Of a stretch of DNA of 64,000 nucleotides, positions 16,128 through 58,306 are shown piece after piece (position 1 is the stretch's first letter; each line of letters opens with the position of its first letter). The notes under the pieces are model-generated. The model searched no databases, was not told the origin of the DNA, and worked only from the letters and a program-made list of their open reading frames with translations. The stretch spans positions 374,889,419 through 374,953,418 of the forward strand of contig CM077643.1 in the NCBI GenBank assembly GCA_039707465.1. The letters are read 5' to 3'. This stretch comes from Rhabdophis nuchalis (lineage: Eukaryota; Chordata; Lepidosauria; Squamata; Natricidae). Both the position numbers and the translations under genes were made by a program.

Positions 16128-17280
16128 GGCCGGCCGGCGGAAGTAGTGAAACGGAGGAAGGGGAAGGGGGGGGTCGTTTCCACTGAGGTTTTCTCTATCG
16201 ATTCGGTTTTAGGGAGGGGCATGGGCGGTGGGAGGCGGAATGGGCATTACCTGTTGGAAGATCGAGGCCACTGGCTACAGGCAGTCACGCGCTCCAACTC
16301 TCCGTGCTCCCATCGCAGACTAGGAGGGCAGGAATCACAGGACCGGGGCCCTAGGCTGATGTTATGCAATGCCAGGTCCGTGGTACAAAAAGCCCCCCTC
16401 ATTTATGACCTTGTGTCAGAGGGGGACCCGGACCTGGTGGGTATAACGGAAACCTGGTTGGGCCACGAGGGGGGTCTACCCCTCGTAGAAATGTGCCCAC
16501 CAGGTTACCGTGCCTTTCATCAGCCAGGGGCCCTAGGGAGGGGTGGGGGTGGCGATTATGGTAAAGGAAGGTCTTGAGCCGAGGGAGACCACTGTCCCTC
16601 AGACGACCGGGTGTGAGTCCCTCTTCGTGAGGTGGGGCCTAGGGAGGCAGTTGGGCGTGTTAGTTGTATACCTGGCTCCTCGCTATGCAACAGCAGCCCT
16701 GCCCGAGCTTCTAGAGGTGATAGCCGAGGCGGCAGTTGAGACCCCCAGACTTTTGGTCATGGGGGACTTTAACTTGCCGTCAGTATGCGAAACCTCTGGA
16801 GCAGCTCGGGAGTTTATGGCCTCCATGACAGCCATGGACCTGACCCAGGTAGTTTTAGGCCCTACTCACGAGGAAGGACACACCCTGGATTTAATCTTTG
16901 TCTCGGGACAGTGGAGTAGTGATCTGGGAACAGGGGATCTAGCCATCACACCCTTGTCATGGACAGATCACGCTCTCCTCCGGCTGGACTTTCCAATCGT
17001 CACACCTCACCGCGGGGAGGCAGAGCCTGACATTCCTAGATGGTTACGCCCCAGGCTCCTGATGGACCCAGATAGGTTCCAGAGGGAGCTTGGGCCAATT
17101 CCTGTGACCCTGCCCCACGACTCGACTGAGGACCTAGTGACCGCATGGTTAAGTGCGGCCACGGGGGCCTTGGACCGAGTCGCGCCCTTGCGGCGACGAA
17201 TCATCCAGGCTCCTTGGTTTACCGAGGAGCTGAGGGAGATGAAACGCCACAAGAGACGCCTAGAGAGTAAGCCGCCCAAA
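16128..17280 (+). mobile_element. L2/CR1-group LINE, 5' half with endonuclease domain
   Basis: A GC-rich leader is followed by an apurinic-type endonuclease read in two overlapping frames. The first (16146-16577) has NARSVVQKAPLIYDL (N codon at 16368) and ETWLG (16449). The second (16543-17286) has MGDFNLPS (GDFN at 16762), HTLDLIF and the catalytic-type DH (16966). One indel in the G run at 16538-16552 explains the frame change; otherwise the domain has no stops. This endonuclease nicks target DNA for target-primed reverse transcription. The coding sequence stops abruptly near RLES at about 17266, before any reverse transcriptase, so the copy is broken. Confidence 0.88.
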
Positions 17281-17542
17281 CACTAGTGAGAACCCATATT
17301 AGAACTTAACGTCATCCCTCTCTGCCCTTCGACTCAACCCAGAGATCATCCAGACAGAGAACCAATTAGATTACTGCTGTGTGAAATTTTTTAGATATGT
17401 GTTAGATTTTTAAGGGCTGAAAATAAAGAGACCAGGATGGATCCATTTCAGGCTTATTAGGATGACGTTAAGTCTCCTCCCTTAAAGGGGCCCTGAACAG
17501 GAGCTGTGAAAATATTCTCTCATTAATAAGAGTCCTGTAAAT
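17281..17542. other. Spacer with short inverted repeats between the L2 half and the hAT composite
   Basis: ACTTAACGTCATCC near 17306-17319 recurs inverted as GGATGACGTTAAGT near 17460-17473. Between them lies the SINE fragment at 17400-17460. The stretch ends with the left hAT TSD CTGTAAAT (17535-17542). No gene. Confidence 0.5.
17400..17460 (-). mobile_element. SINE 3' fragment, exact inverted copy of 19783-19843
   Basis: All 61 bases are the reverse complement of 19783-19843, the 3' part of a complete SINE. It contains CTTTATTTTCAGCCCTT on the minus strand. The tRNA head is absent, so it is 5'-truncated. Confidence 0.85.
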
Positions 17543-17994
17543 CAGGGGTCCCCGGGCCGCGGACCGGTGCCGGTCCGTGGCTTGGTAGGAACCGGGCCGC
17601 AGGGCCGGAGAGGAGGAGGAGGGAGGACGGGGCAGAGTGCATGGGAGAGTGCAGGCGCGGCTGTTTGCACTGTTGGAGTGCGGCTCTTCCTCCACCCTCA
17701 TCGACGGTGGGATCCTGGGCACTGCAGCAGCAGCCCTCCCTACCGGCCACCGATTCCCTCCCTCCCTCCCCCCGTGGAGCCTCCCCAGCCGGCATGCCAG
17801 CCACTCGTCTTCTTCCAGGGGCTGCGGAGGCTCCGTGGGCGGGGGGAGAGAACCGGCGTCCCCCCCCCAACGGAGCCTGAGCAAGCAAACAAGCGACCAA
17901 GCGTGGTGGCCGGGCGGGCGGGGCAGGCTAAGGCGAGTGAGTGCGGGGGGCCGGGCTGTGGAGGCTCCGCGGGGGGCGGGGGCGGGCGGGGACG

Positions 17995-18423
17995 ACGACA
18001 GACAGACACAGAGAGGCACAGAGACAGGGAGGGAGGGGGGAATCAGAGAGTGACAGATACACACATAGAGACAGAGAGGGAGGGAGGGAGAGAAAGAGAG
18101 AGACACAGAATGAGTGATTAAGTGCATGAATGCGAGACAGACAGACACACACACACACACATAGAGTGACAGATGGGTGGACGAAGGAAAGAGAGACAGA
18201 GAGAGAAAGAAAAAGAGAAAGAAAGAAAAAGAAAGTAGGAGAGAGAAAGAGAAGGAAAGACAGAAAGAGAGAGAAAGGAAAGAAAGAGAGAAAAAAGAGA
18301 GAGAAAGAAAGAGGGAAAGAAAGAAAGAGAAATAAAGAGAGAAATAAAGGGAGAGAAAGAGAGAGAGAAAGAGGAAAAGAAAGAGAAAGAGAAAGAAAGA
18401 AAGAGAAAGAGGGAAAGAGACAG

Positions 18424-18510
<87 letters not shown>

Positions 18511-18511
18511 A
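17995..18511. repeat. Long purine-rich tract ending in (GAAA)n
   Basis: About 500 bases are almost entirely A and G on the plus strand, first as mixed GAGA/GACA units, then as a pure GAAA array from 18424 to 18511. Reading frames across it are low-complexity artefacts. The tract lies inside the hAT composite. Confidence 0.9.
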
Positions 18512-18568
18512 CTTATGACCACAATTGAGCCCAAAAGTTTGGTTGTTAACCAAGACCATTGTTAAGTG
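18512..18568 (+). mobile_element. GTTAAGTG-type squamate repeat fragment
   Basis: It reads CTTATGACCACAATTGAGCC then TTGGTTGTTAACC and GTTAAGTG, the start of the repeat also found at 8775 and 12188. The L2 piece is inserted at its right end. Confidence 0.65.
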
Positions 18569-19531
18569 GATGGGATGGGTAGTAACAAACTCAGGCTCAA
18601 CCCGTCCAAGACCGAGTGGCTGTGGTTTCCGGCACCCCGGTTCAGCCAGATAAGTCCAACACTGGCCATTGGGGGCGAACAACTGGCCCCCGTGGAGAGG
18701 GCGCGCAACTTGGGCGTCCTCCTGGATTCCCGGCTGTCCATGGAGGACCATGTGGCGGCCGTGGCCAGGGGGGCGTTCTATCAGGTACGCCTGATACGCC
18801 AGTTGCGCCCCTTACTGGACCGGGGAGCCCTTCGCACAGTCACTCAAGCGCTTGTGACGTCCCGGCTGGATTACTGTAACGCTCTCTACATGGGGCTCCC
18901 CTTGAGGTGCACTCGAAAGCTACAGTTAGTACAGAATGCGGCCGCGCAGGTGATTATGGGTGCCTCAAGGCAAACCCACATAACACCTCTCCTGCGCGAG
19001 CTGCACTGGCTGCCTGTGGCCTTTCGAGTGCGCTTCAAGGTATTGATGACCATCTTTAAATCGCTCCATGGCTCGGGGCCTAGCTATATACGAGACCGCC
19101 TCCTGCCCCATACATCCCTTCGTCCGATCCACTCCCACAGAGAGGGTCTTCTTCGGGTGCCGTCAGCAGGGCAATGCCGGTTGGCGACACCCAAGGGAAG
19201 GGCCTTCTCTGTGGCGGGCCCGGCCCTCTGGAACGACCTACCCCCCGACCTTCTTACTATCTCCGACCTCCGCCTCTTCCGCCAACGTCTTAAGACATAT
19301 TTATTTCAACAAGCCGGCCTAGGATAGCCCCCCGTCTCTGACTTTTTAAAGAAAAATTTGTAATTTGGTAAGGGTTTTAATATTGGGTTTTAGCACGGGT
19401 TTATTAATTTAATACATTTTAATTGATATTTATTGTATTTTGTGTTTTTAAATAATGCCTGTGCGCCGCCCTGGGTCCTAACAAGGAGAAGGGCGGGGTA
19501 TAAATTTAAAATAAATAAAAATAAAATAAAA
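18569..19531 (+). mobile_element. L2/CR1-group LINE, 3' part of the ORF and tail
   Basis: A stop-free frame to 19325 encodes the region after the reverse transcriptase YADD motif: NKLRLNPSKTEWLW, LVTSRLDYCNALYMGLP, KLQLVQNAAAQVI, HITPLLRELHWLPV and GPALWNDLPPDL, ending QQAGLG. The 3' UTR has CGCCGCCCTGGGTCC then GAGAAGGGCGGGGTATAAAT and an AAATA-rich tail. TAAGTG occurs at both ends (18563-18568 and 19532-19537), consistent with a TSD. It is 5'-truncated; the catalytic core is missing. The long intact frame implies a young copy. Confidence 0.9.
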
Positions 19532-33957: not shown

Positions 33958-33988
33958 TATTCTATTCTATTCTATTCTATTCTATTCT
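33958..33988. repeat. (TTCTA)n microsatellite
   Basis: About six pentanucleotide units. The same unit forms the CR1 tail at 46493-46512, but no CR1 body is visible beside this one. Confidence 0.88.
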
Positions 33989-38970: not shown

Positions 38971-39143
38971 TAGGGGTGTCAAACTTGATATCATTGACAA
39001 CTGCATCTGGCTTGTATTTGACCTCAGGGGTCGGGGTCAGTGTGGCCTGGCCAGCTTCATGTCACTCATGTCAAGGGCACCTGTGGTGGCCCAGGCGAGG
39101 CTGAGGCGATCCTTCCTTCCTTCCTTCCTTCCTTCCTTCCTTC

Positions 39144-43126: not shown

Positions 43127-43166
43127 TAGGTAGGTAGTTAGGTAGGTAGGTAGGTAGGTAGGTAGG

Positions 43167-43256
<90 letters not shown>
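43127..43256. repeat. (GGTA)n then (GATA)n array
   Basis: Ten or so GGTA/TAGG units followed by about 22 pure GATA units (43167-43256). GATA arrays are the Bkm-type satellite of snakes. Confidence 0.95.
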
Positions 43257-46022: not shown

Positions 46023-46512
46023 GGAGATGACGTGATGTAGAAAAGATGTAGAAAGACTCTAGAAAGAGTGCAGAGAAGAGCAACAAAGTTGATTAGGGGA
46101 CTGGAGGCTAAAACATATGATGAACAGTTGCAGGAACTGGGTATGTCTAGTTTAATGAAAGGAATGAATAGGAGTGGCATGATAGCAGTGTTTTGATATC
46201 TCAGGAGCTGCACAAAGAAGAGGGAGTCAAGCCATTCTCCAAAGTACCTGAGGGCAGAACAAGAAGCAATGGGTGGAAATTAATCAAGGAGCGAAGCAAC
46301 TTAGAACTGAGGAGAAATTTCCTGACAGTTAGAATAATTAATCAGTGGAACAGCTTGCCTCCAGAAGTTGTGAATGCTCCAACACTGCAAGTCTTTAAGA
46401 AAATGTTGGATAACCATTTGTCTGAAGTGGTAGAGGGTTTCCTGCCTAAGCAGGGGATTGGACTAGAAGACCTGCAAGGTCCCTTCCAACTCTGATATTC
46501 TATTCTATTCTA
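46023..46512 (+). mobile_element. CR1 LINE 3' end with ORF C-terminus and (ATTCT)n tail
   Basis: From ACTCTAGAAAGAGTGCAGAG the sequence follows CR1. A stop-free frame (46193-46493) encodes RSNGWKLIKERSNLELR, RNFLTVRIINQWNSLP, VFKKMLDNHLSEVVEG and QGIGLEDLQGPFQL, the classical CR1 C-terminus. The 3' UTR is very short and the tail is ATTCT repeats (46493-46512). An upstream frameshift or stop near 46185 breaks the ORF. It is 5'-truncated at about 46023. CR1 tails of this kind have seeded ATTCT/ATAG arrays in advanced snakes. Confidence 0.95.
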
Positions 46513-50936: not shown

Positions 50937-51031
<95 letters not shown>

Positions 51032-57530: not shown

Positions 57531-58017
57531 ACGCCAGCCATCGCCTCGCCCATCCCAAGCTTGATGTTCTCCCCACTCCCCCATCCCCACCCCCCATCCC
57601 CACCCCCGCCTTCCCCGCTTCTCGTCCTGGCTGAGTGACTAGGGCACCTGCAGCAGCTCTTGTGGGACGGGGGTGGGGTGGGGGTGGGGAGGGCGGAGAA
57701 ACAGGCCCCACCGCCTATTGCAGTGGCGGGAGATCTCCGCGGCGCTGCGAGGAGGCTGATAAAGAACAAAGACGCCCTTTCGCAGCGGCAGCTTCCGCGC
57801 CTCTCGTTCCCTTCTCGCTTTTGTTCGCGGGTGGGGATCCGAGGATGAAGGCTCCGGCTGACCTGCCCGCCAGCCGCAACTCCCCCTCTTTGATCCACCC
57901 CACCCCCCACCCCCTCTCTACACGCCCACGCGTTGCCAGGAAGGAATGGGTCCTTCTCGCTTTCTCCCACCCTGGTCAGCATCAGGACCAGCGGCTGCTG
58001 GCAAAGGCCCCTCTCTG

Positions 58018-58039
58018 CGTGTTCACAGCGGACCTTGAT
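58018..58039 (+). ncRNA. mir-124-1: Mature miR-124-5p
   Basis: The 22-nt 5' arm product is identical to the human 5p sequence. It is normally the passenger strand. Confidence 0.93.
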
Positions 58040-58056
58040 TTAAATGTCCATACAAT

Positions 58057-58076
58057 TAAGGCACGCGGTGAATGCT
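58057..58076 (+). ncRNA. mir-124-1: Mature miR-124-3p (guide strand)
   Basis: Seed AAGGCAC (positions 2-8) is intact, and positions 1-19 match the canonical sequence. Position 20 is T instead of C; it lies opposite an unpaired C of the 5' arm, so stem pairing is hardly affected. Confidence 0.95.
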
Positions 58077-58290
58077 AAGAACGAGGCTGGAAAAACTTCG
58101 GGCCGGCCGGGAAGGGGGGGGGGGTAATTCCGGGTGGGGGGGTTGATGGAGAACTGCAGGGAAGGATGGATAGGACCTGGAGTATGGTGTGTGTGGATGA
58201 TGCACAATGGGCGCGATTTGGCCAAAGGTTGGGACCTGGCTCCTTCAATAGCCCCAGCCTAGACCTGAATCCTCAGAAAGAATTCCTACT

Positions 58291-58306
58291 TGAATCCCAG
58301 GTAAGT
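58291..58306 (+). promoter_or_regulatory. Splice donor candidate after mir-124-1
   Basis: TGAATCCCAG followed by GTAAGT at 58301 fits the full donor consensus. If used, mir-124-1 lies in the exon that ends here, about 210 bp past the hairpin. A T-rich acceptor-like stretch (58449-58466) with TACAG near 58487 follows, but would give a very short intron. Confidence 0.4.

What the first reader, a model, noticed from the sequence alone, without database searches (positions are those of the whole stretch)
58006..58088. Complete miR-124-1 gene in an otherwise gene-free window
Seen: the 5p arm is exact, 19 of 20 bases of the 3p arm match, and the loop is of mir-124-1 type. Known: miR-124 is the chief neuronal microRNA; mir-124-1 sits in LINC00599/Rncr3. 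Inference: the window is the snake counterpart of the TNKS-MSRA interval.
Basis: partly seen in the sequence, partly recalled or inferred. Interest (0 to 1): 0.75.

Follow-up and report, generated by a model that had tools for sequence, protein, structure and literature searches.

The report
Snake copy of microRNA gene mir-124-1
This is an ordinary, intact copy of a well-known brain microRNA gene in what looks like a snake genome, next to the gene MSRA as in mammals but not next to TNKS.

Summary
Window 58011-58083 (+) is the only Rfam match above a family cut-off in the window: mir-124, 77.3 bits. The stretch 58000-58095 folds with z = -3.4, 0 of 200 shuffles as stable.

Three mir-124 hairpins were found in the genome. 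This one is the mir-124-1 ortholog: MSRA lies 136 kb away, divergent, then XK-related, GATA-N and FDFT1 genes. The other two lie beside YTHDF1 (C2) and YTHDF2 (C12).

'TNKS-MSRA interval' is half right. A tankyrase-1-like exon lies on C2 near PPP1R3B, and no PARP match lies within 29 Mb of the hairpin.

The 3p mismatch is C to U at mature position 20. Both paralogs have C; the predicted fold is unchanged. A thrips paper lists the same form against Anolis.

'Snake' fits the repeats.

An ordinary member of a known family. Side result: a mir-124 and an MSRA-like gene beside YTHDF2, and none found at YTHDF3.

The parts
58011..58083 (+). pri-mir-124-1 hairpin (Rfam RF00239, full-length model match)
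   Evidence: 77.3 bits, cut-off 49; 58000-58095, MFE -32.6, z -3.36
58018..58039 (+). miR-124-5p arm, CGUGUUCACAGCGGACCUUGAU; identical in the three copies found in this genome (arm ends recalled from miRBase)
58040..58056 (+). terminal loop region with one extra base relative to the two paralogs
58057..58076 (+). miR-124-3p arm, UAAGGCACGCGGUGAAUGCU; seed AAGGCAC intact; position 20 (58076) is U instead of C (arm ends recalled from miRBase)
   Evidence: same variant listed against Anolis in PMC6053560 (passage)
57867..58017 (+). moderately pyrimidine-rich stretch 5' of the hairpin, ending CCCCUCUCUG; possible counterpart of the PTBP1-binding CU-rich stretch of mammalian pri-miR-124-1 (weak; the mammalian motif CCUCUCUCUCC is not there letter for letter)
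   Evidence: best 107-nt window (from 57867) 70% pyrimidine, reached by 1.6% of + strand windows; the 107 nt directly upstream only 60%, reached by 10.8%; mammalian motif from PMC11180186 (passage)

Best explanation
The feature is the snake (squamate) ortholog of the neuronal microRNA gene mir-124-1. Shown: an intact hairpin with both arms, the canonical seed, and a conserved neighbourhood on the MSRA side. Inferred from the established biology of the family: it is transcribed rightward as part of a long non-coding RNA in neurons, cut by Drosha and Dicer, and its 3p arm is loaded into Argonaute to repress non-neuronal mRNAs through the seed AAGGCAC. The C to U change at mature position 20 lies in a small predicted internal loop near the base of the stem. 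It leaves seed and predicted fold untouched, so it should change only the 3' end of the mature RNA, making this locus distinguishable in small-RNA reads. Neither tankyrase gene is a neighbour here; the syntenic block runs from mir-124-1 through MSRA, XK-related and GATA-N genes to FDFT1.
For: Rfam 77.3 bits, full model. Fold z -3.36. Three hairpins in the genome, at C1, C2 and C12 (its fourth row is the reverse strand of the C12 hairpin, below the cut-off), confirmed by an 18-mer and a 21-mer, exact only at those three places. MSRA exons C1:374,696,655-374,811,542 (-), mir-124 at 374,947,429 (+); the joined C1 pieces match the solved MsrA 1fva_A over residues 2-151 of 151. FDFT1 C1:373.59 Mb, GATA-N C1:373.67, XK-related gene closest to XKR4 among solved structures C1:374.26-374.43. 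YTHDF1 lies beside the C2 copy and YTHDF2 beside the C12 copy. The position-20 change alters the MFE by 0.2 kcal/mol, same structure. mir-124 is abundant in Anolis brain: aca-mir-124b heads the brain column of Table 2 (PMC4858913, passages).
Against: No small-RNA reads were available, so expression is not shown. Fold energy is unremarkable for the window: 112 of 2842 tiled windows are at least as stable. TNKS, which flanks the human gene (recalled), is elsewhere. This copy scores lowest of the three (77.3 against 85.3 and 81.2 bits). MSRA adjacency alone is not unique, because an MSRA-like gene also flanks the C12 copy. In the Anolis table aca-mir-124b is also listed for skeletal muscle (26,041), so the Anolis counts are not strictly neuronal.
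Confidence: 0.95

Rival explanations
1. It is the mir-124-2 or mir-124-3 ortholog rather than mir-124-1.
For: The three copies share nearly the same hairpin, so the hairpin alone discriminates weakly.
Against: None of the 7 YTH matches is on C1; the YTH exons of YTHDF1 and YTHDF2 lie 40 and 44 kb from the other two copies, and YTHDF3 is on C3. MSRA, FDFT1, GATA-N and XK-related genes flank this one.
Confidence: 0.02
2. A decaying copy: the base change in the 3p arm and the lower Rfam score mark a gene losing function, its role taken by the two other copies.
For: Lowest Rfam score of three; a change in an arm that both paralogs keep; least stable of the three in an 89-nt fold (-30.7 against -36.0 and -32.0 kcal/mol).
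Against: The 5p arm and bases 1-19 of the 3p arm are identical to both paralogs. The same 3' variant is listed against Anolis in PMC6053560, and aca-mir-124b heads the Anolis brain list (PMC4858913), so the variant appears old and expressed in squamates. That the listed form is aca-mir-124b, and that aca-mir-124b is the MSRA-linked gene, is inference.
Confidence: 0.03

Closest known systems
mir-124-1 (human MIR124-1 in LINC00599; mouse Rncr3), Rfam RF00239
   Same: Hairpin, arms, seed, loop type (recalled), MSRA on the divergent side, and XK-related, GATA and FDFT1 genes further out (human map recalled).
   Different: Mature 3p position 20 is U; TNKS is not adjacent; host transcript not demonstrable.
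aca-mir-124b of Anolis carolinensis
   Same: PMC6053560 lists a thrips form UAAGGCACGCGGUGAAUGCUA with Anolis carolinensis in what I read as the matched-species column (passage), the same position-20 variant; aca-mir-124b heads the brain column of Table 2 in PMC4858913 (passage).
   Different: That the matched Anolis form is aca-mir-124b, and that it is the MSRA-linked gene, is inferred; no Anolis genome could be read here.
The two other mir-124 genes of this genome (C2 beside YTHDF1; C12 beside YTHDF2)
   Same: Identical 5p arm and first 19 bases of the 3p arm.
   Different: C at position 20, one base less in the loop, different neighbours.

Membership tests
mir-124 family | Covariance-model match over the whole precursor above the curated score | tested here: met
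   RF00239, 77.3 bits, cut-off 49, positions 1-72 of 72
mir-124 family | Hairpin with paired arms and intact 3p seed AAGGCAC | tested here: met
mir-124 family | Mature 3p sequence UAAGGCACGCGGUGAAUGCC (recalled) | tested here: inconclusive
   19 of 20 bases; U at position 20; the same variant is printed for an ascidian, a thrips and a nematode (passages)
mir-124 family | Neuronal expression and Drosha/Dicer processing | not testable with these tools
   no small-RNA reads
mir-124-1 ortholog | Divergent neighbour MSRA and the XKR-GATA-FDFT1 block (human map recalled) | tested here: met
   GATA-N and XK-related tested at family level only
mir-124-1 ortholog | Not beside YTHDF1, YTHDF2 or YTHDF3 | tested here: met
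   (7 YTH matches, none on C1); paralog names
mir-124-1 ortholog | Embedded in a Rncr3/LINC00599-type lncRNA | not testable with these tools
   only a strict splice-donor match 215 nt downstream at 58298, not evidence by itself
   34 PARP matches, none on C1 beyond 345.15 Mb; tankyrase-1-like exon at C2:141.98 Mb, near PPP1R3B

The most novel reading that the evidence does not exclude
This snake carries its miR-124 dose on a different set of the four genome-duplication copies than mammals do. It keeps the MSRA-linked and YTHDF1-linked genes and a YTHDF2-linked gene (with its own MSRA-like neighbour) that humans lack (recalled), while the YTHDF3-linked mir-124-2 is lost. The MSRA-linked gene makes a U20 mature form that lets its output be counted separately.
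Probability: 0.35. Interest if true: 0.4.

Novelty: already known. Interest (0 to 1): 0.2.

Why it matters
As a gene it is ordinary: miR-124 is among the best-studied animal microRNAs. Two points have modest value. The mir-124-1/MSRA linkage is found here without TNKS, so either the TNKS linkage of mammals is the younger one or TNKS moved away in this lineage. And mir-124 copies lie at three of four paralogous regions marked by MSRA, YTHDF1, YTHDF2 and YTHDF3, a set different from the human one (recalled). The locus-specific 3' base would let small-RNA reads of squamate brain be assigned to this gene.

Tried and rejected
Considered and rejected: mir-124-2 or mir-124-3 identity; a fourth hairpin among weaker matches. 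One search gave 12 places: 3 exact and 9 with 2 mismatches, against 7 for the reversed-pattern control. Five of the 9 (L046-L050) gave no mir-124 match in Rfam at E up to 0.1; the other 4 had no locus and were not scanned. One search gave 51 places: 3 exact and 48 with 2-3 mismatches, against 16 for the control; most of the 48 are variants of one sequence (GTGTTCAAAGAGGACCTTGAC or near it), probably a repeat, and none was scanned further. I first took the C12 copy for mir-124-3 (notebook); the YTHDF identities corrected that.

Led nowhere: paper searches for mir-124 with snake and MSRA (1 paper, unrelated by its listing), with squamate and python, TNKS/MSRA/chicken/8p23.1, three of mir-124/YTHDF2/ohnolog/MirGeneDB, mir-124-1/MSRA/TNKS. 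The pyrimidine-rich PTBP1 stretch is only weakly supported. COX1 was sought to name the species, but the best match is on the 411-Mb contig C1, so probably a nuclear copy of mitochondrial DNA, and it was not pursued. A scan of five neighbour pieces against NCBIfam matched only for the FDFT1 piece (squalene synthase best, below its whole-protein cut-off); the other four matched nothing. A first alignment used the wrong strand for two copies and was replaced. The gene that stands downstream in place of TNKS was not found: that DNA was not obtained.

Full report
Observation. The window holds one Rfam match above a family cut-off: mir-124 (RF00239) at 58011-58083 on the + strand, 77.3 bits, E 3.3e-16, full length. 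The 96 bases 58000-58095 fold as the hairpin plus a 3-pair stem at the left end (MFE -32.6 kcal/mol, z -3.36, 0 of 200 shuffles as stable). Stability alone would not have singled it out: 112 of 2842 tiled 89-nt windows on both strands fold at least as well as the 89-nt hairpin. The sequence does. The exact 18-mer of the 3p arm was found at 3 places in 1.92 Gb and the exact 21-mer of the 5p arm at the same 3 loci, which are the three mir-124 hairpins found with the Rfam model (that search scored 60 of 90008 candidates, and its fourth row is the reverse strand of the C12 hairpin below the cut-off). The inexact matches of both patterns are treated under Tried and rejected.

Which mir-124. The hairpin lies at C1:374,947,429-501 (+). 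MSRA exons lie on the opposite strand at C1:374,696,655-374,811,542, so the two genes diverge, with 136 kb between the hairpin and the nearest exon matched. The joined exon pieces match solved MsrA proteins, best 1fva_A. Further along C1 come an XK-related gene closest to XKR4 among solved structures (374.26-374.43 Mb, +), a GATA-N gene (373.67 Mb, -) and FDFT1 (373.59 Mb, -; squalene synthase). XKR6 and GATA4 are the names expected from human; only the families were tested. By my recollection of human 8p23.1 this is the same order with the same relative orientations. The other two hairpins are 40 kb from the YTH exon of YTHDF1 (C2) and 44 kb from that of YTHDF2 (C12); YTHDF3 is on C3. None of the 7 YTH matches is on C1. 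So the window copy is mir-124-1.

TNKS. The PARP-domain search gave 34 matches at E up to 1; the nearest to the hairpin on C1 is at 345.15 Mb, more than 29 Mb away. Two matches are tankyrase exons by comparison with solved structures: C2:141.98 Mb fits tankyrase-1 slightly better (138.2 against 135.9 bits) and C3:79.94 Mb tankyrase-2 (137.6 against 135.0). The margins are small because only 62 residues were compared. The neighbour supports the first: the PPP1R3 gene at C2:142.15 Mb is PPP1R3B (191.8 against 127.8 bits for 3C), the recalled neighbour of human TNKS. Either way, neither tankyrase exon is on C1. The block ends between mir-124-1 and TNKS, so the window is the counterpart of the MSRA side only.

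The mismatch. Position 20 of the 3p arm is U (58076), where both paralogs have C. Putting the paralogs' letter there in a script leaves the predicted structure the same and moves the energy by 0.2 kcal/mol; it sits in a small internal loop near the stem base. The full-text search for the U variant found 3 papers, of which I read the passages: an ascidian mir-124 (PMC5399378), a nematode mir-124b (PMC5085782), and a thrips table listing UAAGGCACGCGGUGAAUGCUA with Anolis carolinensis in what I read as the matched-species column (PMC6053560). In Anolis brain aca-mir-124b has 96,714 normalized counts against 39,122-39,123 for each of aca-mir-124a-1, -2 and -3; in skeletal muscle it is listed with 26,041 (PMC4858913, Table 2 passages). 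I infer that the variant is shared by squamates and expressed. That aca-mir-124b carries it and is the MSRA-linked gene is not shown.

Surroundings. Of 88 open frames of 90 aa or more I tested 10 against Pfam, and one matched: a LINE-type endonuclease at 16537-17286. A CR1-L3-like 3' end with a short TATTC tail lies at about 46172-46510 and an AATAG array at 33962-33986; ATAG-type arrays lie at 43127-43256 and 50937-51031. PMC6050309 (passages) describes ATAG and AATAG arrays as greatly expanded in colubroid snakes, the latter next to CR1-L3 elements. A pyrimidine-rich stretch upstream may correspond to the PTBP1-bound stretch of mammalian pri-miR-124-1 (PMC11180186, passages), but the support is weak: the best 107 nt reach 70% pyrimidine (1.6% of windows do), those directly adjacent only 60% (10.8%), and the mammalian motif is not there letter for letter.

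Side result. C12 carries a mir-124 and, 77 kb away, an MSRA-like gene (70% identical to the C1 protein over the compared pieces), beside YTHDF2. No hairpin was found near YTHDF3 on C3, neither with the 3p core at up to 2 mismatches nor with the 5p arm at up to 3. Humans, as I recall, have mir-124 at MSRA, YTHDF1 and YTHDF3. A different retained set is therefore possible. But stretches that read N occur in this genome's DNA as served here (in 5 fetched loci, three of which overlap each other, and one of which is the YTHDF3 locus), so loss is not shown.

Verdict. A real and intact gene, correctly named, with one wrong statement about its neighbourhood. Known kind; low interest.

Noticed in passing
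G000:C12:15021401-15032678 (L005, L006, L010): A second MSRA-like gene beside the YTHDF2-linked mir-124, suggesting that the MSRA/mir-124 pair predates the vertebrate genome duplications.
   Followed up: partly
G000:C3 around 183.1 Mb (L020): YTHDF3 locus where mir-124-2 would be expected; no hairpin found in two pattern searches; gap or withheld stretch not excluded.
   Followed up: partly
window 16128-19327: Remains of a LINE retrotransposon (Exo_endo_phos match at 16537-17286), interrupted by a long GAAA array at 18183-18511.
   Followed up: partly
window 46172-46510 and 33962-33986: CR1-L3-like 3' end (name from recall) running into TATTC repeats, and a separate AATAG array, as described for colubroid snakes.
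   Followed up: partly
window 58298-58306: Strict splice-donor match CAGGTAAGT 215 nt after the hairpin, one of 2 on the + strand and 6 on both strands in 64 kb; could end a host exon.
   Followed up: no
window 57443 and 57980: A 13-base direct repeat CATCAGGACCAGC upstream of the hairpin.
   Followed up: no
G000:C1:213330195-213331534 (L061, L062): COX1-like stretch inside the 411-Mb contig with several TGA and one TAG: probably a nuclear copy of mitochondrial DNA.
   Followed up: no
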